Part shown: positions 22,230 to 41,696 of the stretch, piece by piece
Layout: the number at the start of each line of letters is the position of its first letter
Position numbering within the stretch: position 1 is the first letter of the stretch
Assembly (NCBI RefSeq): GCF_001656035.1
Contig: NZ_CP010029.1
Span: forward strand, 896,885 to 960,884
Length of the DNA stretch: 64,000 nt
Source: Yersinia entomophaga
Lineage (GTDB): Bacteria > Pseudomonadota > Gammaproteobacteria > Enterobacterales > Enterobacteriaceae
Direction: 5' to 3'
Position numbers and translations under genes: made by a program
Notes under the pieces: generated by a model
Seen by the model: only the letters and a program-made list of their open reading frames with translations
The model's database searches: none
What the model was told of the DNA's origin: nothing

Positions 22230-23446
22230 GGGCGAACCTCTCCTCGATAGACCACGGTGGCAGGGAGCTGTCCGCCCAGCCAGTAAGATAATTCGGCTGG
22301 ACGAGATAACGGCCAGTGTACCCAGTTGGCGAGTTTGCCGACTTCCAGAGTTCCCTGTGTTTCCTGAACGCCCAGCGCCTGCGCGCCGTGGCAGGTCACG
22401 CCAGCTAGCGCTTCTTCCGGCGTCATGCGAAATAACGTACAGGCCATGTTTAACATCAGGCGTAATGACAGCGCCGGAGAGGTGCCGGGGTTAGCGTCGC
22501 TGGCTAACGCCATAGGCACGCGATAGTGACGGAAAAGCGCTACCGGAGGACACTGGGTTTCTCGCAGCATGTAATAGGCTCCGGGCAGCAACACCGCGAC
22601 AGTGCCCGATGCGGCCATTGCCTGTGCGTCTTGCTCGGTGGCGTATTCCAGATGATCGGCAGACAGAGCGTGATGCCGCGCTGCCAGCGTGCTGCCACCT
22701 AATGAGGAAAGCTGCTCCGCATGGAGTTTGATCGGTAAACCCGCCGTTTTTGCCGCATGGAAAACTCGCTCTACCTGAGTGGGTGAAAACGCTAAATGTT
22801 CGCAAAAAGCATCAACCGCGTCGGCCAGCCCGGCTTCGGCAACCTGCGGAATAATGGTATTACACACCAGATCGATATAATCGTCGGCTCGATTAGCATA
22901 TTCCGACGGCAGAGCGTGGGCAGCCAGACAGGTGGTTTTTACCTCGACCGGCAGCATTTCGCCAAGCCGGCGAGCGACCCGCAGCATTTTCAGCTCGCTT
23001 TGCAAACTCAGACCGTAGCCGGATTTGATTTCCAGACAGGTAACGCCTTCGGCCAGCAGCGGTTTAATGCGAAACAACGCCTGTTCCAGCAGTTCATCTT
23101 CGCTGGTTTGTCGGGTTGCATTTACCGTGGAAATAATCCCACCGCCTTGAGCGGCGATCTCGGCATAACTCACGCCGTTTAAGCGTTGTTCGAATTCGCT
23201 GCTGCGGTCGCCGCCAAAAACCAGATGTGTATGGCAATCAATTAAGCCGGGAGTAATGATTCCGCCGGGAAAAGTCATTTCCCGCGAGGCTCTCACGGCA
23301 GGCAAAGCGGCGCGCGTGCCAATCCAGATAATTTTCCCATCATGAACGGCAATCACACCGTCGCTAATAGTGTGATAGTGGCCGCCGCGCATAGTGACGA
23401 TATCGGCTCCAGACCACAAGCTGTCGCAGTAAATTACAGACGCCAT
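22226..23446 (-). CDS. hutI: Imidazolonepropionase HutI
   Basis: A 406-residue amidohydrolase-superfamily enzyme that opens imidazolone propionate to N-formimidoyl-L-glutamate, third step of histidine degradation. The metal-binding HTHLVFGG and the [19 protein letters not shown] and [10 protein letters not shown] signatures are seen. I set the start at the ATG at 23446, which follows GGAGGAT; an upstream ATG at 23488 falls inside a HutC-like operator and lacks a ribosome-binding site. Transcribed with hutG toward the porin. Confidence 0.92.
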
Positions 23447-23476
23447 CTTTATCCTCCGCCCCGCGGGGCGATACAG

Positions 23477-23488
23477 TTGTATATACAA
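23477..23488. promoter_or_regulatory. HutC-like operator upstream of hutI
   Basis: TTGTATATACAA is a perfect 12-bp palindrome, 30 bp before the hutI start. Its TGTATATACA core occurs again in the hutC/hutF intergenic region, which argues for a shared operator of the GntR-type repressor HutC. Urocanate would be the inducer by family knowledge. Confidence 0.65.
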
Positions 23489-23570
23489 TCAAAGACAACC
23501 TAGCCTATAAATCCAAGGTCAGCAACCGGCAACATGCAGCAATTTGCGCTATCACACCTTTAATTTGTTA

Positions 23571-24338
23571 TCAGGATGTTAGGGTTCCCTGTGGTGTAAA
23601 ACGACCAAATAGTTGATAGCGGGAACCGGGGTACAGCAGTTGAGCGGAAGTGACTACGGCTTTGCCGAACCAGGTACGACGGCGAATCAATAAACATGGC
23701 TCATTTTCATTTAACGCCAGTAACTTACGTTCTACCGGCCCCGGCATGACGGCCTCGACAATATGCTCGCCTTCGGTCAATGGCGCGGCCTGCGTCAGAT
23801 AGCTGTAGGGTGTGATGCGGCTAAAATCTTGCTGCATATAATCGGGAGCGGTCAGCGGGTTGACGCAGCGATTTTCTACCTGCACCGGAATATCGTTCTC
23901 AAAGTGAACAATCTGGGAGTAGAACAGCTGCTGTCCGGCCAGAATGCCCAAGGCGATTGCTTCTTCCTCCGTAGCGGGACGAGCTTCCAGCAGTAGAATT
24001 TTGCTGCTGTGGCGATGCCCGCGCGCGGCAATTTCATCAGCAATATTGTGTACGGCCAGCAATGCACTGTGTGCCTTGGCTTCGGCCACGAAGGTGCCCA
24101 CGCCTTGCATTCGAACCAGAAAACCCTCACTGGTGAGTTCCCGTAACGCGCGGTTGATGGTCATGCGGCTAACGCCTAATTCCGCCACTAATTCACTTTC
24201 TGAGGGAACGCGCTGATGGGGTTGCCAAGCGCCAGAACGGATTTGCCGAATGATGGCCTGTTTAACCCTCAGATAAATAGGGGCAGGAGCGTCATCCATA
24301 ACGCTGGTGAGTTGTAATAGGCACTGTTGTTCAGCCAC
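23571..24338 (-). CDS. hutC: Histidine utilisation repressor HutC (GntR family)
   Basis: A 255-residue GntR/HutC-subfamily repressor. The winged helix covers about residues 20-85 (IYLRVKQAIIRQI, VPSESELVAELGVSRMTINRALRELTSEGFLVRMQGVGTFVA) and the UTRA effector domain about 100-250. I choose the GTG at 24338 because GAGG stands 9 bp before it; an upstream ATG at 24413 would overlap the putative operator, and an internal ATG at 24299 lacks a ribosome-binding site. It probably represses hutIG, hutFD and itself, relieved by urocanate. Confidence 0.88.
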   Translation of the reverse strand: MAEQQCLLQLTSVMDDAPAPIYLRVKQAIIRQIRSGAWQPHQRVPSESELVAELGVSRMTINRALRELTSEGFLVRMQGVGTFVAEAKAHSALLAVHNIADEIAARGHRHSSKILLLEARPATEEEAIALGILAGQQLFYSQIVHFENDIPVQVENRCVNPLTAPDYMQQDFSRITPYSYLTQAAPLTEGEHIVEAVMPGPVERKLLALNENEPCLLIRRRTWFGKAVVTSAQLLYPGSRYQLFGRFTPQGTLTS

Positions 24339-24401
24339 GGCGTTAACCTCGTCAAAGAAATAATAATAAGATAAGTCTACGGTTGAATTTAGCGTATGTA
24401 T

Positions 24402-24413
24402 ATGTATATACAA
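24402..24413. promoter_or_regulatory. HutC-like operator in the hutC/hutF intergenic region
   Basis: ATGTATATACAA matches the palindrome before hutI at 11 of 12 positions, keeping the TGTATATACA core. It lies between the divergent starts of hutC (24338) and hutF (24486), so one site could control both. Confidence 0.6.
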
Positions 24414-24485
24414 GTAGGCGAATTAATTTATTGACGCGACTGTGTCTCGGCGCGTTTGAGTGTCATCACAACCTTGGGATTCACT

Positions 24486-25859
24486 ATGCCTGCATATTTT
24501 GCCAAACGCGCTTTTTTACCCGACGGATGGGCCACGGATGTTCGTTTGGAGGTCGACGCACAGGGGCATATTTCGCAAATTATCACCGGTGGACGCGACG
24601 CTGGCTGCCTGCTGCTAGGCGGGCCAATCCTGCCCGGTATGCCTAATCTTCATTCCCACGCTTTTCAGCGCATGATGTCGGGGCTGGCTGAAATTGCCGG
24701 AGATCCGCAGGATAGCTTCTGGACATGGCGCGATTTAATGTACCGATTAGTCCAGCGTCTGACCCCTGAGCAGGTCGGTATTATTGCCCGTCAGCTGTAC
24801 ATTGAGATGCTGAAGGGCGGTTACACTCAGGTGGCTGAGTTCCATTATTTGCACCATGCCCCGGATGGTAAACCTTACGCAGATAGCGGGGAGATGACCG
24901 GGCAACTCAGTCAGGCTGCGGAACAAGCCGGGATTGGCATGACGCTGTTACCTGTGTTGTATCGCTACGCCGGATTTGGCGGGCAGCCCGCGCAGCCCGG
25001 TCAAAGGCGCTTTATTCAGGATGTAGAGAGTTATTTGCAGCAACAGCAGAAAATTGCCCAACAGATACGGCATCAACCACTACAAAATCAAGGGTTATGT
25101 TTTCATTCGCTGCGAGCGGTAGAGTTGGAGCAAATGCAGCAAATACTGGCCGTGTCGGATAAACAGTTGCCGGTGCATATTCATATCGCTGAGCAGCAAA
25201 AAGAGGTGAATGACTGTCTGGCATGGAGCGGTCAACGACCCGTGGCTTGGTTATATAATCATTTACCGGTAGATAGCCGCTGGTGTCTGGTGCATGCCAC
25301 TCATCTGGATAATGACGAATTATCCGCGCTGGCTGCCAGTCATGCAGTAGCGGGGCTTTGCCCAACCACAGAGGCCAATCTGGGCGACGGTATTTTCCCG
25401 GGGGTTGAATACATTCAACATCATGGGCGCTGGGGAATTGGTTCCGATAGTCACGTTTCACTCAATGTGGTGGAAGAACTGCGCTGGCTGGAATATGGGC
25501 AGCGGCTACGAGATCAGCGGCGTAATCGCTTGACCAGCCCTGAGCAACCGGCGGTGGCTGATTTGCTGTATAGCCAGGCGTTATCCGGCGGTGCGCAGGC
25601 CTGCGGTACCCAAATTGGAGCATTGGCGGTCGGCTATCGAGCCGATTGGTTGGTGTTGGACGGTGACGATCCTTACATTGCCGGCACACCTTCATCGTCG
25701 TTACTGAATCGCTGGCTTTTTGCCGGTGATAAATCGCAGATCCGCGATGTGTACGTAGGTGGTAAGCCGGTGATTATTGGCGGTTTCCATCCGTTACAGC
25801 AGCTGAGCGCTCAGGCATTTTTGGCGGTGCTGAAAGACTGCCTGCGGGAGGCTTTTTAA
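24486..25859 (+). CDS. hutF: Formimidoylglutamate deiminase HutF
   Basis: A 457-residue amidohydrolase that converts N-formimidoylglutamate to N-formylglutamate and ammonia, the fourth step of the five-step histidine route. The metal ligands HSHAFQRMM, the HIHIAEQ block and the IGSDSHVSLN motif with the catalytic Asp region are clear. I start at the ATG at 24486 (MPAYFAKRAFLPDGWA), the beginning typical of the family, rather than a TTG ten codons earlier at 24456. The TAATG overlap with hutD by 1 bp shows coupling. Confidence 0.92.
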   Translation: MPAYFAKRAFLPDGWATDVRLEVDAQGHISQIITGGRDAGCLLLGGPILPGMPNLHSHAFQRMMSGLAEIAGDPQDSFWTWRDLMYRLVQRLTPEQVGIIARQLYIEMLKGGYTQVAEFHYLHHAPDGKPYADSGEMTGQLSQAAEQAGIGMTLLPVLYRYAGFGGQPAQPGQRRFIQDVESYLQQQQKIAQQIRHQPLQNQGLCFHSLRAVELEQMQQILAVSDKQLPVHIHIAEQQKEVNDCLAWSGQRPVAWLYNHLPVDSRWCLVHATHLDNDELSALAASHAVAGLCPTTEANLGDGIFPGVEYIQHHGRWGIGSDSHVSLNVVEELRWLEYGQRLRDQRRNRLTSPEQPAVADLLYSQALSGGAQACGTQIGALAVGYRADWLVLDGDDPYIAGTPSSSLLNRWLFAGDKSQIRDVYVGGKPVIIGGFHPLQQLSAQAFLAVLKDCLREAF

Positions 25860-26434
25860 TGAGTCTGACATTTTTTGATTATGCCAGTTTACCCGTGAGT
25901 CGCTGGCGCAATGGCGGGGGAGAAACCCGTGAAATTGCCTGCTGGCCGGTAGGTGGCGAGGATTTTGGCTGGCGAGCCAGCATTGCGACCATTGAACAAA
26001 ACGGGCCGTTCTCCACCTTTCCTGAGGTTGAACGTTCGATAACCTTATTGGCGGGTGACGGAGTCAGGTTATTTAGCGCAGAGGGTCATATTGATCACGA
26101 ACTCGCTCAATCTTTGCAGCCATTCTCGTTCCCGGGGGATATTGCGCTGGAGGCGACATTGCTCGGAGGTAACAGTCAGGATTTTAATATCATGACGCGA
26201 AGAGGCTGCTGGCGCGCGGATGTCTGCATCATTTCTGGTGCGCAGCCATTGCCCGTCAGTCGTGCCGGTGTGGTGTATGTGGTTCGCGGTGATTGGCAGA
26301 TTCAACACGAGGAAAGCCGCCGGTTATCTCATCAACAGGGTTGTTGGTGGACGCCAATGATTAGAGGGGGACAATTGCGTCCCCTGGTCGCGAATAGCCA
26401 GCTAATTTGGGTTGATTTATTATCCGCAGTTTAG
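25859..26434 (+). CDS. hutD: HutD family protein
   Basis: A 191-residue cupin-like HutD protein. The conserved N-terminal SRWRNGGGETREIA, DFGWRASIATIEQNGPFSTFP and SITLLAGDGV blocks identify it. HutD proteins are encoded with hut genes and are thought to limit hut expression, perhaps by binding formylglutamate; the mechanism is not established. It is the second gene of the hutF-hutD operon. hutU and hutH, needed for the first two steps, are not in this window. Confidence 0.88.
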   Translation: MSLTFFDYASLPVSRWRNGGGETREIACWPVGGEDFGWRASIATIEQNGPFSTFPEVERSITLLAGDGVRLFSAEGHIDHELAQSLQPFSFPGDIALEATLLGGNSQDFNIMTRRGCWRADVCIISGAQPLPVSRAGVVYVVRGDWQIQHEESRRLSHQQGCWWTPMIRGGQLRPLVANSQLIWVDLLSAV

Positions 26435-27497: not shown

Positions 27498-30400
27498 ATG
27501 GCATCAGATGACACTGCGGCGGTATTGCTTTCTCGGTTGCGAGCTGCGGGGCTCGTGCTGTGGGAGGAAGATGGAGAGTTGCACTATCGGGCACCTGAAG
27601 GTTCACTGACGCCAGCGGATTTGAAATCGTTACGAGCAGCCAAGCCATTGTTATTAAACCAGTTGTTGGCAGAACGGGATAAATTCATTCTGCTTGAAAA
27701 TACCGCTGAGCGTTACCAGCCTTTTCCTCTGACAGATGTGCAGGCCAATTATCTTTTAGGGCGTGAAAATGTTTATGGCTACGGCGGCATTGGGTGCCAC
27801 GTCTATCTGGAGGTCACCTATCCAGATTTAGTTGCTACAAGAACGGAAAACGTTTGGAATCAGCTCATTGCGCGGCATGATATGCTGCGAGTCGTGATGG
27901 AAGCCAGCGACAGTCAGCGGATTTTATCTAAGGTTCCCTTTTTTACCATTCCCTGTGGGGATATGAGGAACCTCACGAGCGCGCAAGCGCAAACCGCATT
28001 GGATCGAATACGAGCTGAACTCAGCCATAAGAAATACGATCCGCAACAGTGGCCACTGTTTGAAATAAGAATCAGCCGAACTGCTGAATACAGCGTATTA
28101 CATTTGTCGGTGGATTTATTAATGGCCGATTGGTCCAGTATTTGCCTTCTTTTAGCTGAATTTGAAGGACTGTATGCCCAACCTGACAAAGCCTTAGATC
28201 CGATAGATGTCACTTTCCGGGATTATTTACTAGCAGAGCGGAAGTTGCGCGGTAGCCCAACGTACAGTCGCGATCGGCAATATTGGTTGCAAAGCTTGGC
28301 TAATTTCCCCTCTGCCCCTGAGTTGCCGCGCGCCGAACATCTTCCTCAACCTGAGAATGCCCGTTTTCGGCGGCGTCATCTGAGGCTTGATAATGAGGAC
28401 TGGCTGGATTTAAAGCAGCATGCAACGGCACACGGGTTAAGTCCTACCTCCATTATATTAACCGCTTTCTCTGCGGTTATTGCGCGTTGGAGTCTGAACA
28501 AAAAGTTTTGCCTGAGCTTAACGGTGCTAAATCGTTTGGCTGCCTATCCGCAAATAGAGCAGGTCGTTGGAAATTTTACATCCGTCAGCCTATTTCCCGT
28601 TGACTGGCAGTCAGATAGTTCTTTTGCGCAACAGGCCGCCGCTATCAGCGCACAGCTTTTTGCTAATCTGGATCATCGTCTATTTTCAGGCATTGAGGTG
28701 TTGCGGGAGTTGGTTAGGCAGAAAGGGCGAGGGGCCGCGCTCATGCCGGTTGTATTCACCAGCGCAATTGGGCTAAGGGATTATAACTCTTTGCTGAGTA
28801 GCGATGGTCGTTTGGATGGGCGCGGTATCACGCAGGCACCTCAGGTATTTATTGATTGCCAAGCGGCAGATGACGCGCACGGATTACAGATTAACTGGGA
28901 TATCCGTGAGGGAATATTTCCTATGGGAATGGCGGATGACATGTTTGACGTCTTCACCGAGTTGTTGCTTGGGCTCGTTGATTCCGTTGGTCTCTGGCGG
29001 CAAAAATATCAGCTACCGCTTCCGGCATGGCAGCGAAAAGAACGGCAAAAAGCCAACAGTACCATGATGAAAATCACCTCGAAGCTGTTGCATCAGGCCA
29101 TATTTCAGCAGGCTGAACGAACGCCGGGAGCCGCAGCTGTTATCGATTCACAACAATCAGTTAGCTATGGCGAATTGGCTGAACGAGCCAGGGCGGTGGC
29201 GAATCGTTTGCAACTGTTAGGATGTCGTAGCGGTGAATGCGTTGCGGTGGTGATGAATAAAGGTGCGGAACAGATATCGGCGTTATTAGGCATTTTTTCC
29301 GTGGGTGCTGTTTATGTCCCAATTGATGTAGGGCAACCGGAAGTACGCCGTTTTTTCATCCTTAAAGATGCCGGATGCAGGCTGGTATTGACCACGTCAG
29401 AGATGACCATGCGTTGGCCTGCAGAATTGAAACGGGTAGATATTGATCGTCTTAAATCTCAGTGTCATGACATCATGGTTCCGACAATAACGTCAGAATC
29501 GCCAGCTTATGTCATTTATACATCAGGCTCCTCGGGGCAACCCAAGGGCGTAACGGTATCTCATCGTTCCGCGCTAAATACCATATTGGATATTAACCGC
29601 AAGTTTAAAGTTTCCTCTCAGGATCGAGTGTTGGGCTTGGCTCATTTGGATTTTGACCTCTCGATTTATGATGCACTCGGCCTGCTTTCTGTTGGAGGCT
29701 CCTTGGTTTATCCGCGATCTCATCGTGCATCCGCATCTGACCCGGCTCATTGGGTTGAATTGATGCTCAAACATAGCATCACGCTATGGAATACGGTTCC
29801 AGCAATGATCCAAATGCTGGAGACTTATTTAACCAGTATGCCACCGATTCGTATGCCAGCTTGGCGTTTGGCATTAGTTTCCGGCGACTGGGTGCGGCCT
29901 GGTTTACCTGACGCCCTAAAGGCTCGGTTCCCACAGCTTCAACTGGTTGTATTGGGTGGGGCGACGGAAGCCGCGATTTGGTCAAACTATCATTGTTATC
30001 AAGGCGCTCAACCGGGGTGGCGCAGTATTCCGTACGGTTTTCCTTTAGCCAATCAGAGATTGCACGTTCTGGATGAGAACACGCATGATTGCCCGGTTTG
30101 GAGTAAAGGTGAGATTTATATCGGTGGTGACGGGGTAGCGATAGGCTATATAGGGGATGAATTCACAACATCCCAGCGCTTTATAACCCATAAGGAAACA
30201 CATTCTCGGTTGTTTCGCAGTGGCGACTTTGGGCGCTATCTTCCAGGAGGCGAAATTGAGTTTCTGGGGCGTGAAGACTGCCAAACCAAAATCAACGGAC
30301 AACGCATTGAGCTGGGTGAAATTGAATCGGTACTGTGTCAGCATCCAGGCGTAGCCGCCGCTGGGGTGGCGATCAGCGAGTTTGAAGGTCATATTTCACT

Positions 30401-33032
30401 CTTTGCCGCAGTAGAAACACGCCAATCCACCGTTCAGCCTGATCCGATACCAATACACTTTAACCTTGAGCGACGAAATAGGTTGGAGTACCGCACTAAA
30501 CATATCTTATATGAATACACCGCTTCTCAAGTTGTTGCTGCGTTAGAGTCACTCAACGAGGCTATGTTGGACTCAATGCGTTCGGCTCTATTACAGTTAG
30601 GGCTATTTGCGCTAAATGACAGGGAAAAGACAGAACAATGGATAGGTGATAGTGCGATCTCCCCCGATTTCTATTGGCTCATAGAACGATGGTTTGCGGT
30701 GCTATTAACTGAAAAATGGTTACTAAAAAACTCTGATGGTTCCGTCATGCTGGCTAACCGAATAAATCAAAATGAGGGGCATCATCGCTGGCGAAAAGCT
30801 GAATGTTTATGGAATAACGTTCTGGCCAACTCGGAGTTTCTTGGCTATCTGAAACGTTGTGCTGACAGCTTACCGGCGCTATTGAAGGGGACGCTGGATG
30901 CCAAAAACCTGTTGCTACCACAGGGCAATATGGCTGTCGTTCAGGCATTGTATTGCGAAAATATGATGGCGCAGTATCTCAATGATACGGTGCGTGATCT
31001 AATCGGCAATATTGCGTCAGATCGTTTATCTAATCGACGTTTACGAATACTTGAGGTCGGCGCAGGAAGTGGTTCGATGACTCAGGCAGTATTATCGATT
31101 TTTCGTAACTATTCCGTTGATTATCTGTTCACCGACATATCCACCTTTTTCCTTTCGGAAGCACGCGCAAATTTCGGTAGTTTTCCCGATATCTCATTCA
31201 CCCGATTCGATATTGAACAGGATTACCGCAGTCAGGGGCTACAGCCAAATGGGTTTGACATTGTGCTAGTCGATGGCGTGCTGGGAAACATCAGTCATCT
31301 GGAGGAGGCCTTATGCCAATTGATTGAGCTGGCAGCGCCGGGCGCCTGGCTAATCCTGGCTGAATCCACGCAGGAACATCCGTGGATACTGGCTTCACAG
31401 GCTTTTATGATGAAGAGCAAAACGGGGTTATCACGTTCTCAGGCCGCTTATTTAAACCGAAACGACTGGCTGACCCGGCTTGCTAACTATACCGACGGAG
31501 AAGTTATTTGCTTACCCGAATCGTCGCATCCGCTGTTTTCTTTGGGGCAGCATATATTTGCCGCGCGGTTAAAAACTCAGCGTGCTTTTCTTACAGTGAC
31601 TCAGATCGGTGCCTTTCTTCGGATGCGGCTTCCTGATTATATGATTCCGGAGCAGTGGCAAATAGTGGATAAATTACCAGTAACCGCCAACAGTAAGCTG
31701 GATCGCAAACAATTACGTCGGTGGCAAATGGCTGCGTGGCAACATTATCAACGCCAGCCAACGACATCGGGTAATGCGAATCTATTAAATAACAAGCTGG
31801 CTGAAATGTGGAGAAATGCGTTAGGGGTGACGCAACTGACACAATCGCAGAATCTGTATGAAATGGGGGCCGATTCTCTGATTATGGCGCGGATGGCCAG
31901 GCGAATGCGTGAACAGCTAAAAGGAGCGCCATATGGTGTTGATGAGATCCCTTTTGATGCATTGTTATATCTAATGCTAAATCAACCAACCATTGAAGCA
32001 CTGGCAGAATTTATTTGGCATTACCCCAAAATGTCGGCAATGAATATTGGCCATCAGCACACTGCTATTGGCGGAGAAAATACTAAACCCTTTCGAAGTA
32101 ACGGCATATTTTATCACTATGGAGGAGGTAATACCGATGTTACCCGCATAGTCTTTCACGCGGGTTTAGGTTCAATGGACAGCTTCCAACCGTTATTGAC
32201 GGAAATGGCTGAGCAATCTGTGGGGGCGGTGATCGGTATTAGCGTCGCTGACGATAAGAAATATTGTGCTCTAGATACAGAAAGGTTGGTTGAACGAATT
32301 GCGGATGATTATGCCACCTTCTTACTTGCTGCCGGATATCAACAGCTCCAACTTTTAGGGTACTGTCTGGGAGGGCTTTATGCCGTTGAAGTTGCCCGAC
32401 GTTTAAAAGACCGTGGCGTTAACATCCTGGACTTGGTGTTAGTCAGCAGTCATCCGGTGCGCTTTGAAGTCCACGATGAATTGATGATCGAAATGTTGTT
32501 TCTGCCCAATCTGAGCATCTCAATAGAGCAGTTAGAATTAGGTGCCATAAATAGCAGCCTATTGGTTCAGGGTTTTATGCAGGTTATTGAAGCTAATAAT
32601 GGGGTCATCCCCATGGATTCGTTAGGTACGATAGGTAACGGGGGAAACTTGGATCAGGTAGGCGAACTGTTTAGAACGTTGAACACCCAAACTCGCCGTC
32701 AACGATTTGAATGTTATGTTGCTGCTAAGGCACGTCACATTGGGCAAACTATGCCGGTGGAGAAGGCTATGGAGCTTTTTACCGTCTTTCGCCAAAGCTT
32801 TCTCTCTGGGCGCTTCACGCCCACACCTTATTTGGGTGATATTCGTTTTTTGCTACCTCAGCAAGGTTATGATTTCGCGCCAGGAATTGATAGTCAGACA
32901 TTAGCGTTTTGGCGTGAGATCTGTTTAGGGACAATGAAAGTAACTCATATTGAAGGAAATCATTTCAGCTGTATTGCCGCAGAAAATGTGGCGTCATTGG
33001 CCCGTTTAATTGCTTTACCATTTCAGAAGTAA
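27498..33032 (+). CDS. Single-module nonribosomal peptide synthetase, Cy-A(Cys)-MT-PCP-TE (PchF-like)
   Basis: An 1844-residue NRPS. Order: TubC-like docking domain (about 1-60); heterocyclisation (Cy) domain (about 70-500) with the diagnostic DxxxxDxxS as DLLMADWSS at 206-214; adenylation domain with YTSGSSGQPKG near 675; an SAM-dependent methyltransferase inserted between A8 (GREDCQTKINGQRIELGE) and A10 (NSKLDRK), with motif LEVGAGSGS near 1184; a carrier domain with MGADSL near 1458; and a C-terminal thioesterase with GYCLGG (Cys 1623). The specificity code I read by alignment to GrsA is D-L-Y-N-L-S-L-I-W-K, the published cysteine code. This is the architecture and length of pyochelin PchF, so it should form and N-methylate a thiazoline/thiazolidine. 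The start at 27498 follows AGAGGGA. No other synthetase, salicylate or export gene is nearby. Confidence 0.9.
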   Translation: MASDDTAAVLLSRLRAAGLVLWEEDGELHYRAPEGSLTPADLKSLRAAKPLLLNQLLAERDKFILLENTAERYQPFPLTDVQANYLLGRENVYGYGGIGCHVYLEVTYPDLVATRTENVWNQLIARHDMLRVVMEASDSQRILSKVPFFTIPCGDMRNLTSAQAQTALDRIRAELSHKKYDPQQWPLFEIRISRTAEYSVLHLSVDLLMADWSSICLLLAEFEGLYAQPDKALDPIDVTFRDYLLAERKLRGSPTYSRDRQYWLQSLANFPSAPELPRAEHLPQPENARFRRRHLRLDNEDWLDLKQHATAHGLSPTSIILTAFSAVIARWSLNKKFCLSLTVLNRLAAYPQIEQVVGNFTSVSLFPVDWQSDSSFAQQAAAISAQLFANLDHRLFSGIEVLRELVRQKGRGAALMPVVFTSAIGLRDYNSLLSSDGRLDGRGITQAPQVFIDCQAADDAHGLQINWDIREGIFPMGMADDMFDVFTELLLGLVDSVGLWRQKYQLPLPAWQRKERQKANSTMMKITSKLLHQAIFQQAERTPGAAAVIDSQQSVSYGELAERARAVANRLQLLGCRSGECVAVVMNKGAEQISALLGIFSVGAVYVPIDVGQPEVRRFFILKDAGCRLVLTTSEMTMRWPAELKRVDIDRLKSQCHDIMVPTITSESPAYVIYTSGSSGQPKGVTVSHRSALNTILDINRKFKVSSQDRVLGLAHLDFDLSIYDALGLLSVGGSLVYPRSHRASASDPAHWVELMLKHSITLWNTVPAMIQMLETYLTSMPPIRMPAWRLALVSGDWVRPGLPDALKARFPQLQLVVLGGATEAAIWSNYHCYQGAQPGWRSIPYGFPLANQRLHVLDENTHDCPVWSKGEIYIGGDGVAIGYIGDEFTTSQRFITHKETHSRLFRSGDFGRYLPGGEIEFLGREDCQTKINGQRIELGEIESVLCQHPGVAAAGVAISEFEGHISLFAAVETRQSTVQPDPIPIHFNLERRNRLEYRTKHILYEYTASQVVAALESLNEAMLDSMRSALLQLGLFALNDREKTEQWIGDSAISPDFYWLIERWFAVLLTEKWLLKNSDGSVMLANRINQNEGHHRWRKAECLWNNVLANSEFLGYLKRCADSLPALLKGTLDAKNLLLPQGNMAVVQALYCENMMAQYLNDTVRDLIGNIASDRLSNRRLRILEVGAGSGSMTQAVLSIFRNYSVDYLFTDISTFFLSEARANFGSFPDISFTRFDIEQDYRSQGLQPNGFDIVLVDGVLGNISHLEEALCQLIELAAPGAWLILAESTQEHPWILASQAFMMKSKTGLSRSQAAYLNRNDWLTRLANYTDGEVICLPESSHPLFSLGQHIFAARLKTQRAFLTVTQIGAFLRMRLPDYMIPEQWQIVDKLPVTANSKLDRKQLRRWQMAAWQHYQRQPTTSGNANLLNNKLAEMWRNALGVTQLTQSQNLYEMGADSLIMARMARRMREQLKGAPYGVDEIPFDALLYLMLNQPTIEALAEFIWHYPKMSAMNIGHQHTAIGGENTKPFRSNGIFYHYGGGNTDVTRIVFHAGLGSMDSFQPLLTEMAEQSVGAVIGISVADDKKYCALDTERLVERIADDYATFLLAAGYQQLQLLGYCLGGLYAVEVARRLKDRGVNILDLVLVSSHPVRFEVHDELMIEMLFLPNLSISIEQLELGAINSSLLVQGFMQVIEANNGVIPMDSLGTIGNGGNLDQVGELFRTLNTQTRRQRFECYVAAKARHIGQTMPVEKAMELFTVFRQSFLSGRFTPTPYLGDIRFLLPQQGYDFAPGIDSQTLAFWREICLGTMKVTHIEGNHFSCIAAENVASLARLIALPFQK

Positions 33033-33108
33033 ATGAGGGGCATTGAATAGACCCGGGTTTCGTAGGCACTTTTTTGCCTCATAATGGAGGCTCAATGAAG
33101 GAGTGTTT

Positions 33109-33387
33109 ATGTCAGCCAAAAATTTCACTGAAGAATTCAAAATTGAAGCCGTACAACAGATTAGCGAGCAGGGATACCCTGTTTCTGAGGTTGCGGCACG
33201 ACTCGGTGTTTCTACCAACAGCCTTTACGCGTGGATTAAGCGTTACCAAAAACCTGAACCACAGCGAAAGCAGGACGATGCCCTTCAGCACGAAGTAAAG
33301 CGCCGCAGGCAAGAACTTAAGCGTGTGACTGAAGAGCGAGATATTTTAAAAAAGGCCGCCGCGTACTTTGCAAGAACGTCAGGCTGA
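33109..33387 (+). CDS. IS3-family transposase OrfA
   Basis: A 92-residue helix-turn-helix protein (FKIEAVQQISEQGYPVSEVAARLGVSTNSLYAWIKRY) with a C-terminal leucine-zipper-like helix (KRVTEERDILKKAAAYFA). ATG 33109 has GGAG at proper distance. A run of six A plus G near 33347 is a plausible slippery site for the programmed -1 frameshift that makes the OrfAB transposase. Confidence 0.88.
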   Translation: MSAKNFTEEFKIEAVQQISEQGYPVSEVAARLGVSTNSLYAWIKRYQKPEPQRKQDDALQHEVKRRRQELKRVTEERDILKKAAAYFARTSG

Positions 33388-33407
33388 AGTACGCCTTCAT
33401 TAAACAA

Positions 33408-34259
33408 ATGTCCTCCTTTTATGCTGTACGCCGGTTGTGTCTGGTTCTTGGCCTCCATTACAGCGGTTATTACCAGTGGCTAAAGCGACCTCAATCTTTG
33501 CGTGCCAGGCAAGATGAGCGCCAAACAGGTCTTATTAAGCAGCTGTGGCTTGAAAGTGGTACGGTTTATGGTTATCGAAAAATCTGGCTCGATATGAAAG
33601 ACTTGGGTGAACGCGCTGGGCGTAACAGGATCGCGCGCCTAATGAGGCTTGCAGAGTTGGCTTCTCAAACCGGATACCGGAAACGACGCTATTACGGCGG
33701 CGGAAAGCCTTCAGTTGCCAGCCCTAATTACCTTGAGCGCCAGTTCATTGTTCCTACCCCAAATACTCATTGGGTGAGTGACATGACCTATATAAGAACG
33801 CATGAGGGTTGGTTGTATCTGGCCGTTGTTCTCGATCTCTTCTCGCGCCGGGTTATCGGCTGGAGTATGGGTGGACGAATGACAGCAGAGTTGGTGATGG
33901 ACGCCTTGTTGATGGCGGTGTGGCGACGCAAACCAGCGGCAGAAGTACTAATCCATTCGGATCAGGGTTCTCAATATACGAGCGAAAGATGTCAGCACTT
34001 TATGACAGCTCACAATTTAAAAAGCAGCATGAGTCGTCGTGGGAATTGCCATGATAACGCGGTGGCAGAAAGTTTTTTCCAGTTGCTGAAACGAGAACGC
34101 ATAAAGAAACGGATCTATAAAAATAGAGAAGAAGCAAAGGCTGATATCTTCGATTATGTAGAGATGTTTTATAATGCTAAACGTCGGCATAGTGCCTGTG
34201 AAGATCAACCCCCTGCAGTTTATGAAAGTGCCTGGTTCATGAGGCACGCTACCGTCTAG
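33408..34259 (+). CDS. IS3-family transposase OrfB (DDE integrase domain)
   Basis: A 283-residue catalytic part with an rve integrase core. The DDE residues are in WVSDMTYIRT (Asp), IHSDQGSQYTS (Asp) and NAVAESFFQLLK (Glu). It is in the -1 frame relative to OrfA and probably expressed as a fusion. No frameshift or stop interrupts it, so the element may be active. Confidence 0.9.
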   Translation: MSSFYAVRRLCLVLGLHYSGYYQWLKRPQSLRARQDERQTGLIKQLWLESGTVYGYRKIWLDMKDLGERAGRNRIARLMRLAELASQTGYRKRRYYGGGKPSVASPNYLERQFIVPTPNTHWVSDMTYIRTHEGWLYLAVVLDLFSRRVIGWSMGGRMTAELVMDALLMAVWRRKPAAEVLIHSDQGSQYTSERCQHFMTAHNLKSSMSRRGNCHDNAVAESFFQLLKRERIKKRIYKNREEAKADIFDYVEMFYNAKRRHSACEDQPPAVYESAWFMRHATV

Positions 34260-34278
34260 GAAACTGGGGTCTATTCAA

Positions 34279-34808
34279 AATCGCTGGAAAAGCTGGAAAC
34301 TCAATATATCTGCCGGGTATTGCGTATTGCTGAGGAATTGGTGAAGCAATTCCGGTTTTCCAGTGTATTCAACGCTGGGTTCGTTACGCTATCGCTTAAA
34401 TCCAGTACCCGACGCTTGTTGAATCGTGAGCTAGGTAAGGTAGAAGCAAAGCGAGTACTGAAACGCTGGAAGCACCTTCTGAAACCCCTGAGGCGAGATC
34501 TGGCTTTACTGCTGGATCATTACGAAGGTACAGCATTGACCAACCGTTACGGTAAATGTGTTACCAATGCGGTAGGGCAGTCATTCAATATCACCTACAA
34601 AGATGTGGCAGCGCGTAAACGGAGGAAGTCAGATGTGATGCGCCGGAAGCTGCTTTCGCATATGTTACAGGGCCTGGAAAGTCAGGCCGTATACGATTAC
34701 GTTGCCAGCCATAAGGGCGTTTGTGCGCTGGAACACGATGGGTTTGTTTCTTATGAAGAGATCACTGACTGGTCCCATCCATATCTGTTGATTGAGAAAA
34801 AGCATTAA
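34279..34808 (+). pseudogene. 5'-truncated gene of unknown function, cut by the IS
   Basis: An open frame runs without interruption from the IS edge (SLEKLETQYICRVLRIAEEL at its beginning) to a stop at 34808, giving about 175 residues with no upstream start; a TTG at 34320 is the first possible start inside. The protein is basic (many KR pairs, AARKRRKSDVMRRK) and ends with CALEHDGFVSYEEITDW. I do not recognise the family; the HDGF context resembles palm motifs of some polymerases but this is not evidence enough. Loss of the N-terminus by the IS or by an IS-mediated deletion is likely. Confidence 0.5.
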
Positions 34809-35221
34809 GGGGAGCCACTCAGTCAATTACAGCTTATCCCGGTTGATAGACTAGACGGGACATTTAGCTCTTTCATGATGTGCATAGCAGGTGATCCTAG
34901 CCTGCTTTCAGCGAGGAACTGACATTTAATTTATATTTTTTCAGGTGGTTACATTCAGTAATCCACCACATTTCCTCATTATCAGCGTCTCCGCAGCAAA
35001 ATCGCCCACAGTTGCACCCTACAGAAATTGACACTATTGTTGGCCGAGAGGTACTGGCTGTGGGCTGGAAAGCGATAAGAGGGCGATGAACCACAAAATA
35101 TTCCCGTTTTGTTACTTTGATACGATTGCTCAAAATGGGTGGCAACACTGAGATAGTTGAAATGACTGCATGTTACATTGTTACTTTTGTTACCGTTGAA
35201 AACATCAAGTTGGAGAGCTAA
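34809..35221. other. Intergenic region with a weak terminator
   Basis: About 410 bp. A short hairpin, AGCAGG / CCTGCT at 34886-34906 followed by TTT, could end the truncated gene. Minus-strand open frames here have no good start signals and I reject them. Promoters for the next gene probably lie around 35150-35200. Confidence 0.35.
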
Positions 35222-35929
35222 ATGGATTGGCCAAAGGAGTACAGCAAGACGACTCAAGCGGTAAGAGATGCGGCGTATAAACACTACTATGTTGAAGCAA
35301 TCACACGGTCGGTTCTGCTACCGGGACAGGAGAAAACCGCTTATCACGATGGACTACTAACGACGGATTATTACCTTTTCCTGTTCACCAGCAGGGAGAA
35401 TCCGAAGCTTACAGGGTATTTTACCTGTGGCTTGTATGCTGCAAAGGGGTGGTTCGAGTTGAACGGACAGCGACCTGAGGAAATTCCATCATACAACCCC
35501 CTTACGGGCGAGTCCTCCGGTGGTAGTAAAAAGAGTGGCTGCGGGATTACTAAACCGCTGAAAGCTGAATCAGACCCAAGAATGAAACGTCTTATCAGGG
35601 TACTCCAGACGTTCATTTCTCTGACGGACGATGAGAAAAGGAAAATAAAAGGCGAGTCAACCACACTGGCTGTCCTACAGAAGCTCATAAAAGCGTCAAA
35701 AGAAGCCCCCAGCACGTCAAATATTAGATCAGTAAATACCACTCTGTACAAAGCGCTCAAGGATGGCCGTCATGGTGGTGCTCGTACATTCACTCAACTA
35801 GTTGGTTATTACGAGATTCTTCTTGGTGTGACTTTCAAGAAGATATCTATTGATGATTTCAATCAGGAGATCGACGATACCCGTAACAAGTCAGCGACAT
35901 ATCCGTATATCCCTTTGGCATCATTCTGA
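35222..35929 (+). CDS. Hypothetical protein of the island (235 aa)
   Basis: I do not recognise this protein. It is soluble and begins MDWPKEYSKTTQAVRDAAYK; the first half has aromatic-rich strands (TDYYLFLFTSRE), the middle a Gly/Ser-rich linker (GESSGGSKKSGCG), and the second half is helical and basic (KRLIRVLQTFISLTDDEKRKI). There is no membrane segment or known catalytic motif. GAGAGCTAA before the ATG is a weak ribosome-binding site. It is 250 bp upstream of the GHKL-nuclease gene in the same direction, so the two could work together, but this is only position. Confidence 0.55.
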   Translation: MDWPKEYSKTTQAVRDAAYKHYYVEAITRSVLLPGQEKTAYHDGLLTTDYYLFLFTSRENPKLTGYFTCGLYAAKGWFELNGQRPEEIPSYNPLTGESSGGSKKSGCGITKPLKAESDPRMKRLIRVLQTFISLTDDEKRKIKGESTTLAVLQKLIKASKEAPSTSNIRSVNTTLYKALKDGRHGGARTFTQLVGYYEILLGVTFKKISIDDFNQEIDDTRNKSATYPYIPLASF

Positions 35930-36175
35930 AATGAAGTGCTACAGTCTTGTCTGCTATCGGCCCATCGATCAAGCTTAGTGGGCGGAAGCTCTGTTAGGAA
36001 CGAGGGGCTGGTCACGGGGTGGCGATTGGAAAATGCTGAGTGATGGATTTCGCTTCCAGCTCAAGCGTTAAGATTGAGCTAGCTGAATATAGTTCTTTAT
36101 AACGACAGCATTAGTTCTTAGGAAATCTACCATTTTATGGCAGTATTCTTAAACACACTATGTCAAGGAATACGT

Positions 36176-38155
36176 ATGTCAAGAATCACCGTCAAAGCTG
36201 GAGCCGACTTTCTTACTGGATTGGCTCATGCAAAACCAGTTGCCGCATTGAGTGAGCTAATTTGGAATGGTTTTGATGCAAAATCTAAGCGTGTTGAGAT
36301 CGAGATTAAGACGGATCTGGCCTTTGGGGGGATTGAAGCAATTCTGATTAAGGATTATGGTACCGGAATTGCTCACAATAAAGTTGTGGATTACTTTGGT
36401 AATCTCGGTGAATCTTGGAAAAAAGCTGAGAAGGCAAATGGAGATCGTTCCCTCCATGGCCAGTTTGGGCGGGGGAGATTCAAATCTCTTTCTCTTGGTG
36501 AACAAGTTCATTGGAAAACCGTGTTCGAAAAAAATGGATCAAAATATAAATACACGATTTCAACCGATGCTAATAAAATTAACGATTTTACAATCAGTGA
36601 GCCAGAGTTAGCTGATGATGAAGATGTAGGTACACAAGTAGAGATTTATAATGCTAGTAACACTGCGGAGCTTTTATTAACTGAAGATGCTTTAGCTGAT
36701 CTAATCATGGAATTTGCTCTTTTCCTTACAGAGTATCCAAGTAGGAAGTTAATATTCTTAGGTAAGAGTGTCTCACCTTTTGATGCTTGGTCTGACAAAC
36801 AGGACTACGATATAGGCGGGGTGAGTCTCCCAGATGGTTCATTGATTAATGCTTCCTTGACTATTATAGAATGGAAAAAGAAAGTTCATAGGGAACTTCA
36901 TTATTGTGATTTGTTAGGGTTTTCTCTATACAAAGAGAAAATTGGGCAGATTATTCGCGCTCCTGGGTATGATTTTACACTCTACGCGAAGTGTGATTAT
37001 TTTAAGACGCTAAGTAATAAAAATGAAGTATCTTTAGGTGAGCTTATTCCTGAGGTTAGAGCGATTAAAGATGCTATCATTCAACGGGCGAAGATTCATT
37101 TTCTCGACAAAGCATTTCTTAATAAATCCAAAATCGTCGACTCTTGGAAAGAACAAGAAATTTACCCATATAACGATGACGTACTCCAAGGTCCGACGGA
37201 AGTAATTGAACGAAAGGTGTTTGATATTCTTGCGGTTAATGTTCAAAGCTATCTCAAAAGCTTTGAAAGTGCTGATAGGAAAACAAAAAAATTCACCTTT
37301 ATGCTCTTATCTCAAGCGATTAAACAGAATCCCACGTCTGTTCAAAAAATTCTAACCGAAGTGTTAGGTTTGAAGTCTAAAGAGCAAGATGAATTGGCTG
37401 CGTTATTGGAGAGGACAACCTTATCATCAATAATTAGTGCTTCTCAGATTGTGTCTAATAGAGTTGATTTTATTAATGGGCTAGATAATCTTTTACATGA
37501 TAAAAATACAAAGAAAACATTATTGGAAAGAGATCAGCTTCATAAAATTATAGAAAAGGAAGCTTGGCTTTTTCGGGAGGACTTTTTCCTTGCTGGTTCT
37601 GAAGACTGGCTTGAAGATGTTTTAAAAAAACATATCAAGCATCTTGGCAAAAGATATGATGAGGATGATAACGAACCTGTTTTACTCCCAGATGGAAGGC
37701 AAGGCCGCGTTGACCTAATGTTTGCAAAGTGCCGTCAACCGTATGAAGGCTATACAGAGTATTTAGTCGTTGAACTTAAACGGCCCTCTCAGAAAATTAA
37801 TTACGATGTTATCGGTCAGGTCGAAAAATACGCGTTATCTGTTTCTGGGGATGAACGTTTTGATCATACTAAATCAAAATGGACTTTCATAGCAGTGTCT
37901 AACTCAATGGATGAGTATGCTGAACGTAGGGCTAATCAACGTGGGTGGCCTAAAGGTAAAACATTAGATGATGCTGAGTTAAATGTTGAAGTATGGGTTA
38001 TGATCTGGGCTGAAGTGTTGAATGCAGCAAGAGCAAAATTAAGTTTCTTTAGTAAGCAGTTGAATCTAGAGGCATCAAGAGATGATGCAACATGTTATCT
38101 TGAAAAGACACACCGTGAATTTATTCCGGTTATAAATAGTACTGAAGAAGTCTAA
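36176..38155 (+). CDS. GHKL ATPase fused to a PD-(D/E)XK nuclease-like domain (candidate defence protein)
   Basis: A 659-residue protein. The N-terminal part (about 10-150) is a GHKL/HSP90-type ATPase: the N box ELIWNGFDA (26-34), G1 box KDYGTGI (59-65) and the lid GQFGRGRFKSLSLG (95-108). The C-terminal part holds RVDLMF (about 510) and, 20 residues later, YLVVELKRPSQK (about 531) and QVEKYA: the D...ExK arrangement of PD-(D/E)XK nucleases, resembling the Shedu (DUF4263) domain. The start at 36176 follows AAGGA; an ATG 39 bp upstream is possible. A strong terminator follows. ATPase plus nuclease, island location and low GC point to defence against phage or plasmids; the function is inference. 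Confidence 0.7.
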   Translation: MSRITVKAGADFLTGLAHAKPVAALSELIWNGFDAKSKRVEIEIKTDLAFGGIEAILIKDYGTGIAHNKVVDYFGNLGESWKKAEKANGDRSLHGQFGRGRFKSLSLGEQVHWKTVFEKNGSKYKYTISTDANKINDFTISEPELADDEDVGTQVEIYNASNTAELLLTEDALADLIMEFALFLTEYPSRKLIFLGKSVSPFDAWSDKQDYDIGGVSLPDGSLINASLTIIEWKKKVHRELHYCDLLGFSLYKEKIGQIIRAPGYDFTLYAKCDYFKTLSNKNEVSLGELIPEVRAIKDAIIQRAKIHFLDKAFLNKSKIVDSWKEQEIYPYNDDVLQGPTEVIERKVFDILAVNVQSYLKSFESADRKTKKFTFMLLSQAIKQNPTSVQKILTEVLGLKSKEQDELAALLERTTLSSIISASQIVSNRVDFINGLDNLLHDKNTKKTLLERDQLHKIIEKEAWLFREDFFLAGSEDWLEDVLKKHIKHLGKRYDEDDNEPVLLPDGRQGRVDLMFAKCRQPYEGYTEYLVVELKRPSQKINYDVIGQVEKYALSVSGDERFDHTKSKWTFIAVSNSMDEYAERRANQRGWPKGKTLDDAELNVEVWVMIWAEVLNAARAKLSFFSKQLNLEASRDDATCYLEKTHREFIPVINSTEEV

Positions 38156-38163
38156 TTATCCTC

Positions 38164-38184
38164 ACCGCCTTCGGGCGGTTTTTT
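38164..38184 (+). terminator. Rho-independent terminator after the GHKL-nuclease gene
   Basis: ACCGCC-TTCG-GGCGGT stem with the stable UUCG tetraloop followed by six T residues, 9 bp after the stop codon. Confidence 0.9.
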
Positions 38185-38490
38185 GTTGTTATTAAAATGA
38201 TCTACGCATTCTAATAATTATAAAGCTACGACGACTTCCTGTAAGTATCCCTGCAAAATGAGTCATCAATTTTTAGAGAGTTTCTGGCACTTCAACTTCC
38301 GCTTCTGGCTCGAAGTCATGTGGTCTGCCAAGTGCTAGAAGCGGATGTACATGGTCGTGAATTAGTAATCTGCCTAGCAGAAAGATTAATCTGATCCACC
38401 TAACATGGATGGTGAAGTGGACCAAACAGCAGGATATTATCATACCGGTATTGCGTTAATTCTGACCAAGCATATGAGTCTATTCAATAA
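38185..38490. other. Intergenic region holding an IS-end remnant
   Basis: About 305 bp between two convergent island genes. TGTAAGTATCCC at 38240-38251, followed about 20 bp later by TTTTTAGAGA, reproduces the left end of the IS at 40200 without a transposase. The rest is unassigned. Confidence 0.5.
38240..38282 (+). repeat. Solo copy of an IS3-family (IS407-like) left end
   Basis: The first 12 bp are identical to the terminal inverted repeat of the element at 40200-41405, and the spacing to the TTTTAGAGA element is nearly the same, but the bases between differ. No transposase frame follows. It is likely what remains of a related IS. Confidence 0.5.
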
Positions 38491-40035: not shown

Positions 40036-40278
40036 TTATTCTTTTAGCATCCTTTCTCAGATATATCGTTGATTTATCATCATTTGTTCTATTCTTGATT
40101 GGAAGGCATCTTTTCCAACTTATCGGTTTATTCTTGCATCATTACCCTGCTTTCATCAAGGTAATGTAAAGATCTCGTATAACCGAGCGCTGGCTGATGT
40201 GTAAGTATCCCGCTTAAACGGCCCATTCACTTTTAGAGATCTTCCGACATACTGATGATGTCACCTGAGGAGATCCTT

Positions 40279-40545
40279 ATGCGCAAGATCCGATTTACCG
40301 AGCACCAGATCATCGCCGTACTGAAGTCCGTCGAAGCGGGTAGGACCGTCAAAGATGTGTGCCGCGAGGCTGCTATTTCCGAAGCCAGCTATTACAATTG
40401 GAAGGCGAAATATGGCGGGATGGAAGCCGCTGATATCAAAAAAATCAAAGATCTAGAAGACGAGAATCGCCGTCTGAAGCAGATGTTTGCCGACCTGAGT
40501 CTGGAATGCCGTGCGCTGAAAGACGTCATCGAAAAAAAGCTTTAA
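40279..40545 (+). CDS. IS3-family transposase OrfA (IS407-like)
   Basis: An 88-residue DNA-binding protein starting MRKIRFTEHQIIAVLKSVE with the HTH and a coiled-coil tail (KIKDLEDENRRLKQMFADLSLE). The ATG at 40279 follows GGAG; an earlier in-frame ATG at 40255 is less likely. It ends at an A7G run near 40530, a plausible -1 frameshift site into orfB. Confidence 0.85.
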   Translation: MRKIRFTEHQIIAVLKSVEAGRTVKDVCREAAISEASYYNWKAKYGGMEAADIKKIKDLEDENRRLKQMFADLSLECRALKDVIEKKL

Positions 40546-41389: not shown

Positions 41390-41405
41390 AGCTGGGATAC
41401 TTACA

Positions 41406-41599: not shown

Positions 41600-41696
41600 A
41601 GCGAGTCTTTGTCTAGTTCTTATACCGCGATTGTACTCATCCCTATAATCATTTTTCACTGCATTGTCATGAGGTTATGTGAGACGCCATGAAAAG

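What the first reader, a model, noticed from the sequence alone, without database searches (positions are those of the whole stretch)
27498..33032. Orphan Cys-specific Cy-A-MT-PCP-TE synthetase resembling pyochelin PchF
The gene contains every domain needed to take a cysteine, cyclise it to a thiazoline, N-methylate it and release a product. The A-domain residues read D-L-Y-N-L-S-L-I-W-K, identical to the published cysteine code of the HMWP2/pyochelin type. Yet no partner synthetase, salicylate enzyme, reductase, transporter or receptor lies within 20 kb upstream or 30 kb downstream. A TubC-like N-terminal docking domain implies that a partner once existed or is encoded elsewhere, so the product is unknown.
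Basis: partly seen in the sequence, partly recalled or inferred. Interest (0 to 1): 0.78.

Follow-up and report, generated by a model that had tools for sequence, protein, structure and literature searches.

The report
Partnerless cysteine synthetase with altered cyclase
An insect-killing Yersinia carries one lone module of a siderophore-type assembly line that loads cysteine; its partners are missing and its ring-forming site has changed, yet selection keeps the gene and a published mutant in it releases less protein.

Summary
ORF 27498-33032 is one intact TubC_N-Cy-A-MT-PCP-TE protein of 1844 aa with a cysteine-type A domain. The genome is Yersinia entomophaga-like, and the same gene sits at the same place in Y. 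nurmii.

The gene is an orphan genome-wide: no other Cy module, no thiazolinyl reductase and no salicylate synthase above cut-off was found.

Three things change the reading. (1) The closest relative with readable context ends a salicylate-primed metallophore line of coelibactin/sorangibactin type; identity to a Burkholderia PchF-like protein is only 33%. (2) Conserved Cy residues are changed. The PchE T474 equivalent (Thr in 100 of 100 compared proteins) is Ala and the N368 equivalent (Asn in 99 of 100) is Ser in both species. Y. entomophaga has also lost the floor-loop Asp, and Y. nurmii the catalytic Asp (each 100 of 100). The MT core is altered too. (3) The gene is not decaying (dN/dS 0.16; A domain 0.04). 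A gene of exactly this length, PL78_04165, gave a Tn5 mutant with 59% less exoprotein release.

Best reading: a retained cysteine-loading module whose cyclisation and methylation are probably weak or lost, making a small cysteine-derived product rather than a pyochelin. Donor and product are unknown.

The parts
27498..33032 (+). Orphan single-module NRPS TubC_N-Cy-A-MT-PCP-TE (1844 aa; length matches PL78_04165 of Y. entomophaga MH96)
   Evidence: 5535 bp equals the gene length in PMC8789137 Table 1
27525..27659 (+). TubC_N docking domain (aa 10-54); none of 7 near-invariant columns altered
27699..28997 (+). Heterocyclisation (Cy) domain, about aa 68-500; DxxxxD at 28113-28130 intact
28515..28517 (+). 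Ser340 where 99 of 100 compared proteins have Asn (PchE N368, HMWP2 N1751); Ser also in Y. nurmii
28572..28574 (+). Asn359 where 100 of 100 compared proteins and Y. nurmii have the floor-loop Asp (HMWP2 D1770, PchE chain position 387)
28836..28838 (+). Ala447 where 100 of 100 compared proteins have Thr (PchE T474, HMWP2 T1856); Ala also in Y. nurmii
28854..28856 (+). Asp453, Cy catalytic aspartate (PchE D480); kept here, Asn in Y. nurmii
29103..30362 (+). Adenylation core (aa 536-955), cysteine code DLYNLSLIW(K); dN/dS 0.044
30450..31577 (+). Methyltransferase insert (aa 985-1360); core VLEN replaced by VLGN at aa 1261-1264, dN/dS 0.29
31794..32015 (+). Carrier (PCP) domain, Ser1460 at 31875-31877
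31916..31916 (.). Position equivalent to the Tn5 insertion of mutant H27 (bp 4419 of the gene, codon 1473)
   Evidence: coordinate computed from the gene start
32148..33029 (+). Thioesterase with Cys nucleophile motif GYCLGG (C1623 at 32364-32366) and His1822
21414..26434 (.). Upstream flank: histidine-utilisation genes (N-formylglutamate amidohydrolase, hutI, hutC, hutF, HutD-like), same order in Y. nurmii
33041..41689 (.). Stretch without match in Y. nurmii at this place, with IS3-family transposases, starting right after the NRPS stop; in Y. nurmii the NRPS is followed after about 1 kb by the ychF-like gene

Best explanation
It is the terminal cysteine module of a siderophore/metallophore-type NRPS line, carried by an ancestor of Y. 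entomophaga and Y. nurmii and now encoded without the rest of the line. Shown: the frame is intact, the motifs that I checked in the A, PCP and TE domains are present, no partner module was found in the genome, and the A domain is under strong purifying selection. Inferred: the enzyme activates L-cysteine, loads it on its own carrier and releases a small cysteine-derived product through its Cys-type thioesterase. The Cy domain keeps its fold and possibly condensation, but cyclodehydration is weak in Y. entomophaga and probably absent in Y. nurmii, and methylation is doubtful. Any acyl donor must be non-cognate, for example dihydroxybenzoyl-EntB from the catechol siderophore cluster. The product is therefore unlikely to be a pyochelin. 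The gene probably matters to the cell: one published disruption lowered exoprotein release.
For: Intact frame and domains. Genome-wide, 6 condensation hits lie in 3 frames: this one; a 2399-aa EntF-like protein with TE; and a 3939-aa protein ending in a reductase. 13 carrier hits: 6 inside those three, one EntB, six small carriers. No thiazolinyl reductase and no salicylate synthase over cut-off. Partner proteins in three clusters end in MEGGVL, MEEGLL or YETGEL; EntB ends in LAAGAK. Cy changes. PchE N368A, T474A and D480A leave 28.0%, 15.3% and almost no heterocycle; T474A triples the linear product (PMC8807600, passages). dN/dS 0.158 overall, A 0.044, Cy 0.168, MT 0.291. Among 22 non-overlapping pairs of relatives the Yersinia pair has the lowest relative divergence in A (0.33) and the highest in Cy (1.26) and MT (1.39). 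Since the two species split, near-invariant columns changed 6 of 106 times in Cy and 0 of 114 in A (Fisher p=0.012). Tn5 mutant H27: exoprotein -59%, CFU +21% (PMC8789137).
Against: The docking domain is fully conserved (0 of 7 near-invariant columns changed) and under selection (0.143), which suggests that some donor still docks. Y. entomophaga keeps the Thr-Asp dyad and the helper Gln, and PchE mutants at two of the changed sites keep 15-28% activity, so thiazoline formation is not excluded there. One of 100 compared proteins also has Ser at 340. Cy and MT have dN/dS well under 1, within the range of the flanking genes (0 to 0.365), so they are not drifting freely. The A domain changed too along the stem (10 of 114 near-invariant columns, against 9 of 106 in Cy), and the stem is long (0.8), so compensated substitutions are possible. 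The MT residue changed here (Glu in relatives) is Asn in the B. cenocepacia PchF-like protein, so it may be dispensable. The phenotype rests on one mutant without a complementation result in the sections that I read.
Confidence: 0.5

Rival explanations
1. Working thiazoline synthase that borrows the catechol pathway: EntB carries 2,3-dihydroxybenzoate to the Cy domain, giving a dihydroxyphenyl-thiazoline acid that binds iron.
For: An ent/fep-like cluster (most genes named by eye) with an isochorismatase-ArCP protein and an MbtH protein, and three PPTase hits, are present; the Cy dyad and helper Gln are kept in Y. entomophaga.
Against: EntB lacks the acidic partner tail; the T474-, N368- and floor-Asp-equivalents are changed; Y. 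nurmii lost the catalytic Asp; the best Fur-box match upstream is no better than shuffles (36 of 200 reach it).
Confidence: 0.15
2. Decaying remnant: the gene arrived with a lost cluster and is on its way to becoming a pseudogene.
For: No partner; 42 of 344 near-invariant columns altered, the most of the 95 proteins compared; active-site losses differ between the two species.
Against: No stop or frameshift in 1844 codons in two species; dN/dS 0.158 overall and 0.044 in the A domain at dS 0.24; reported mutant phenotype.
Confidence: 0.15
3. Complete pyochelin-type function with a partner that this assembly lacks (plasmid or strain-specific island).
For: Docking domain is kept; the relatives whose context I read sit in clusters with an upstream NRPS.
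Against: Single contig, 100% complete; the Y. nurmii genome (G016) also shows only this one match at E<=1e-100; PMC4885058 reports a single chromosome of nearly the same size (abstract).
Confidence: 0.05
4. The exoprotein phenotype is unrelated to the enzyme (second-site or general effect), and the module makes a minor metabolite with some other use.
For: One mutant only; many unrelated genes lower exoprotein in the same screen.
Against: The next gene downstream is an IS transposase on the same strand, so a polar effect on a co-transcribed pathway is unlikely; CFU was not reduced.
Confidence: 0.15

Closest known systems
Terminal PchF-like synthetase of the Klebsiella pneumoniae plasmid pINF237_01-VP / Serratia marcescens protein P0090 (coelibactin/sorangibactin-like cluster on the plasmid)
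   Same: Same domain order, 46% identity over full length, Cys-type TE, in the sister group of the Yersinia pair (SH-aLRT 97)
   Different: On the plasmid it ends a complete line: salicylate synthase fused to an AMP ligase, a 2482-aa two-module NRPS, Irp3-like reductase, glyoxalase-like protein, ABC transporters, TonB receptors. Here it stands alone and its Cy and MT cores are altered.
Sorangibactin/coelibactin terminal synthetase
   Same: TE with a rare active-site cysteine; Cy (called HC), A, MT, carrier and TE domains in the line (PMC10127202, passages)
   Different: No sequence of those proteins was compared here; partner modules of that kind were not found in this genome
PchF of pyochelin synthesis
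   Same: TubC_N-Cy-A-MT-PCP-TE, cysteine code (PchF's own architecture recalled)
   Different: 33% identity to a B. cenocepacia PchF-like protein (record unannotated; pyochelin link recalled); no PchE or PchG equivalent found in the genome
Yersiniabactin HMWP2/HMWP1
   Same: Cysteine Cy-A chemistry; HMWP2-Cy2 is the best solved relative of the Cy domain
   Different: No irp-type multimodule proteins here; Cy active-site residues of HMWP2 are not all kept

Membership tests
PchF-type terminal cysteine module | Domain order Cy-A-MT-PCP-TE with N-terminal docking domain | tested here: met
PchF-type terminal cysteine module | Cysteine-specific A-domain code | tested here: met
   Motif reading, residues aligned with PchE; GrsA positions and published code recalled; specificity not assayed
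PchF-type terminal cysteine module | Complete Cy active site (Asn, floor Asp, latch Thr, Thr-Asp dyad, Gln) | tested here: not met
   Asn to Ser, latch Thr to Ala, floor Asp to Asn here; dyad and Gln kept
PchF-type terminal cysteine module | Active N-methyltransferase | tested here: inconclusive
   SAM motif present, core VLEN replaced by VLGN
Pyochelin pathway | Salicylate synthase, salicylate ligase, PchE and thiazolinyl reductase in the genome | tested here: not met
   salicylate ligase not searched by its own model, AMP-binding census of 14 hits, not all identified
Coelibactin/sorangibactin-type line | Cys nucleophile in the TE | tested here: met
   GYCLGG; 67 of 95 family proteins Cys, 18 Ser, 10 not caught by the pattern; also in the B. 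cenocepacia PchF-like protein, so not diagnostic
Coelibactin/sorangibactin-type line | Upstream multimodule NRPS and tailoring genes in the same cluster | tested here: not met
Pseudogene | Disrupted frame or dN/dS near 1 | tested here: not met

The most novel reading that the evidence does not exclude
A former siderophore-ending module has been turned into a free-standing cysteine-loading enzyme. Its cyclase works at most as a condensing domain, and its small thiol-containing product acts as a signal or metabolic cue that raises lysis-type exoprotein release in an insect pathogen.
Probability: 0.15. Interest if true: 0.75.

Novelty: new variant of a known kind. Interest (0 to 1): 0.5.

Why it matters
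If right, it shows what becomes of a terminal NRPS module once its assembly line is gone: the amino-acid activating part is held tightly by selection while ring formation and methylation are let go. It also offers a small, testable enzyme behind an unexplained exoprotein mutant of Y. entomophaga. The two species carry different natural changes in the Cy active site, some at residues that biochemists have mutated one at a time in PchE, so they form a ready-made comparison of condensation against cyclisation.

Tried and rejected
Fur-, Zur- and PchR-box-like sites upstream of the gene (consensus recalled): the best scores are reached by 36, 44 and 192 of 200 shuffles, so no metal regulation can be claimed. 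Promoter scan: 8 sites against 12.6 expected; terminator scan: 13 against 7.1, none relied on. Rfam: no match.

Alternative carriers as cognate partner: of the six small carriers, those at 678, 3242, 4068 and 3333 kb were placed by their neighbours, by eye and from recalled family knowledge, as fatty-acid, two secretion-operon and one small KS-linked carrier. The two at 4082 kb were not fetched; aryl-polyene is a guess from a nearby PPTase and AMP-binding hit. Protein ends were read for EntB, the two other synthetases and the carriers at 3242, 4068 and 3333 kb; none resembles the three partner tails. The ends of the carriers at 678 and 4082 kb were not read.

Finding the contexts of the 48-50% relatives in Bacillota and Streptomyces failed: the one genome-contig scan returned only Y. 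nurmii and the whole-genome tool takes no such centre. So whether orphans occur there is open. Order and class searches (1 of 394 and 3 of 369 genomes, own genome included) gave no further close relative; the two class hits besides our own are 38-39% matches inside larger proteins. The tree is a quick one of 51 chosen rows with long branches, so the sister-group place of the Yersinia pair is tentative. The family rows come from the best 120 of 3132 hits that one search lists; 26 of 121 proteins (query included) were dropped for length before the conservation counts.

In the literature searches I found no study of this enzyme's product, but only listings and the passages named were seen. In three later Y. 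entomophaga papers the main text holds none of the NRPS and siderophore terms that I looked for; supplements could not be read.

Full report
What is there. The frame 27498-33032 codes for 1844 residues without a stop. A ribosome-site-like GAGGGA stretch precedes the ATG at 27498. Pfam finds TubC_N, Condensation, AMP-binding, methyltransferase, PP-binding and Thioesterase in that order. The Condensation domain is a heterocyclisation (Cy) domain: among its best solved relatives are HMWP2-Cy2, EpoB, FmoA3, HMWP2-Cy1 and BmdB (some of these names for the chains are recalled). The A-domain code residues are D-L-Y-N-L-S-L-I-W-K, placed by motif; the GrsA numbering and the published cysteine code are recalled.

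Which organism. The window lies at 896885-960884 of a single 4,275,406-base contig. The nearest named genome found is Y. nurmii, 92% identical in this protein. The Y. entomophaga MH96 paper gives one chromosome of about 4,275,531 bp and 93.8% nucleotide identity to Y. nurmii (abstract; passages read). It names PL78_04165 as a non-ribosomal peptide synthetase, and a later paper gives that gene as exactly 5535 bp, the length of ours. I take this to be our gene; the link rests on length, not on a sequence comparison.

Orphan in the whole genome. Six condensation hits lie in three frames. The second frame is a 2399-aa EntF-like protein with a thioesterase, inside an ent/fep-like cluster (genes named by eye). 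The third is a 3939-aa three-module protein that ends in a reductase domain. There are 13 carrier hits: three in the 3939-aa protein, two in the 2399-aa protein, one here, one in EntB, and six small carriers, four of which I placed by their neighbours. No thiazolinyl reductase was found, and no salicylate synthase above its cut-off (best 162 against 325 bits). Saccharopine-dehydrogenase-like hits are all under the cut-off (4 of 4). One MbtH protein and three PPTase hits exist. Y. nurmii (G016) shows only this one match at E<=1e-100. Among 25 Yersinia genomes, 6 have a match at that level, but only these two carry a close full-length copy; the matches of the other four are 33-41% identical. Three upstream partners in other clusters end in MEGGVL, MEEGLL and YETGEL, a likely docking tail; EntB ends in LAAGAK, and the other two synthetases end differently.

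Locus history. In Y. nurmii the gene sits between the histidine-utilisation genes and a ychF-like GTPase gene, as here, except that the present genome has 8.65 kb with IS3-family transposases directly after the stop codon that find no match there. In seven other Yersinia genomes that I fetched, hutF and hutD are present without this NRPS in the roughly 12-14 kb read beyond them. So the gene belongs, as far as I saw, to the Y. entomophaga/Y. nurmii lineage. Its arrival by transfer is an inference from the tree: the pair is sister to a group with S. marcescens and Pantoea proteins, on a stem of 0.8 changes per site.

Kin with context. The only close relative whose surroundings I could read is on K. 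pneumoniae plasmid pINF237_01-VP: 46% identical over its full length and nearly identical to a S. marcescens protein. It ends a line with a salicylate synthase fused to an AMP ligase, a 2482-aa NRPS, an Irp3-like reductase with methyltransferase, a glyoxalase-like protein, a stand-alone thioesterase, ABC transporters and TonB receptors. The sorangibactin paper describes a rare catalytic cysteine in the thioesterase and a glyoxalase-like gene conserved in many homologous clusters (PMC10127202, passages). This makes coelibactin/sorangibactin-like lines the closest known kind, but no sequence from those two clusters was compared.

The Cy site is changed. In 100 compared proteins other than the two Yersinia ones (93 family rows and 7 from other loci), residues 359 and 453 are always Asp and 447 always Thr; residue 340 is Asn in 99 and Ser in one. 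Y. entomophaga has Ser340, Asn359, Ala447, Asp453; Y. nurmii has Ser340, Asp359, Ala447, Asn453 (codons read from both DNAs). These positions are N368, chain position 387, T474 and D480 of PchE and N1751, D1770, T1856 and D1862 of HMWP2 (PMC9547227, passages; alignment). In PchE, N368A leaves 28.0% and T474A 15.3% of heterocyclic product, T474A triples the linear intermediate, and D480A almost abolishes peptide formation (PMC8807600, passages). The dyad Thr421 and the helper Gln455 are kept in both species, and Y. entomophaga keeps the catalytic Asp. Cyclisation is thus probably weak here and probably lost in Y. nurmii. This is inference from other enzymes.

The MT is altered too. The core VLEN is VLGN in both species (Glu in 91 of 93 family rows), with further changes at 1194 and 1259. 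The nearest solved domains by sequence are polyketide C-methyltransferases, which have His at that place in the three alignments shown (CurJ, AprA, DisA). The B. cenocepacia PchF-like protein has Asn there, so the residue alone does not decide activity. One other family row (P0121) has 14 of 58 near-invariant MT columns changed, more than the Yersinia pair, so MT change is not unique to them.

Yet the gene is kept. Between the two species dS is 0.237 and dN 0.037 (ratio 0.158): A core 0.044, PCP with A-subdomain 0.123, TubC_N 0.143, TE 0.150, Cy 0.168, MT 0.291; 13 flanking genes range from 0 to 0.365. Replacement changes are significantly rarer in A than in Cy or MT (Fisher p 6e-5 and 2e-7) and also than in TE and PCP (0.002 and 0.03). 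Among 22 non-overlapping pairs of relatives the Yersinia pair has the lowest relative divergence in A and the highest in Cy and MT. With 42 and 38 of 344 near-invariant columns altered, the two Yersinia proteins lead the 95 compared; the next has 20 of 331. Most of that is stem change, spread over A (10 of 114), Cy (9 of 106), MT (9 of 57), TE (5 of 36) and PCP (3 of 16): 36 columns are altered in both. Since the split, Cy changed at 6 of 106 such columns and A at 0 of 114.

A phenotype exists. A transposon screen for exoprotein release in Y. entomophaga MH96 lists mutant H27 in PL78_04165, gene length 5535, insertion at bp 4419, exoprotein -59%, CFU +21% (PMC8789137 Table 1; sections 16-19 read). 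Bp 4419 is window position 31916, 13 codons after the carrier serine. The paper does not discuss this gene further in the sections read. It is one mutant, and many unrelated genes lower exoprotein in that screen.

Most likely working. Cysteine is adenylated and loaded on the module's own carrier; this is inferred from intact motifs and strong constraint. Release goes through the Cys-type thioesterase. Whether an acyl group is first joined to the cysteine is open. The conserved docking domain argues that some donor still comes, but none of the six carrier-bearing proteins whose ends I read has a fitting tail. Ring closure and methylation are the two steps I would no longer assume.

What counts against this. 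The docking domain is unchanged at all 7 near-invariant columns. Cy and MT remain under purifying selection at levels that are not unusual for the neighbourhood. Compensation along the long stem is possible. Only one assembly per species was read, so a single residue such as Asn453 in Y. nurmii may not be fixed in the species.

Noticed in passing
window 33041-41689: 8.65-kb stretch without match at this place in Y. nurmii, with IS3-family transposase genes near both ends, an HSP90/MutL-like ATPase gene (36137-38155; weak restriction-enzyme match in PADLOC) and proteins without family matches.
   Followed up: partly
L013 247-12066 (- strand), genome 3463246-3475065: 3939-aa three-module NRPS ending in an NAD-binding reductase domain: may release a peptide aldehyde; perhaps the second NRPS (PL78_15615) of the genome paper.
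   Followed up: partly
L008 3571-5076 (- strand): Extra stand-alone 501-aa AMP-binding protein beside the entA-like gene in the catechol siderophore cluster.
   Followed up: no
L041 2886-21225 and L024: K. pneumoniae plasmid pINF237_01-VP carries a coelibactin/sorangibactin-like cluster beside a gene that resembles the zinc chaperone ZigA/CobW (below cut-off) and a peptide deformylase gene: a possible zinc-linked metallophore. Its terminal synthetase is almost identical to one of S. marcescens.
   Followed up: partly
L016, L017 (genomes G019 and G022): Two other Yersinia genomes carry more distant full-length PchF-like proteins (33-36%) beside large multimodule synthetases.
   Followed up: no
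window 57524-57613 and 58951-59040: Two tRNA-Ser (gga) genes 1.4 kb apart on the - strand.
   Followed up: no
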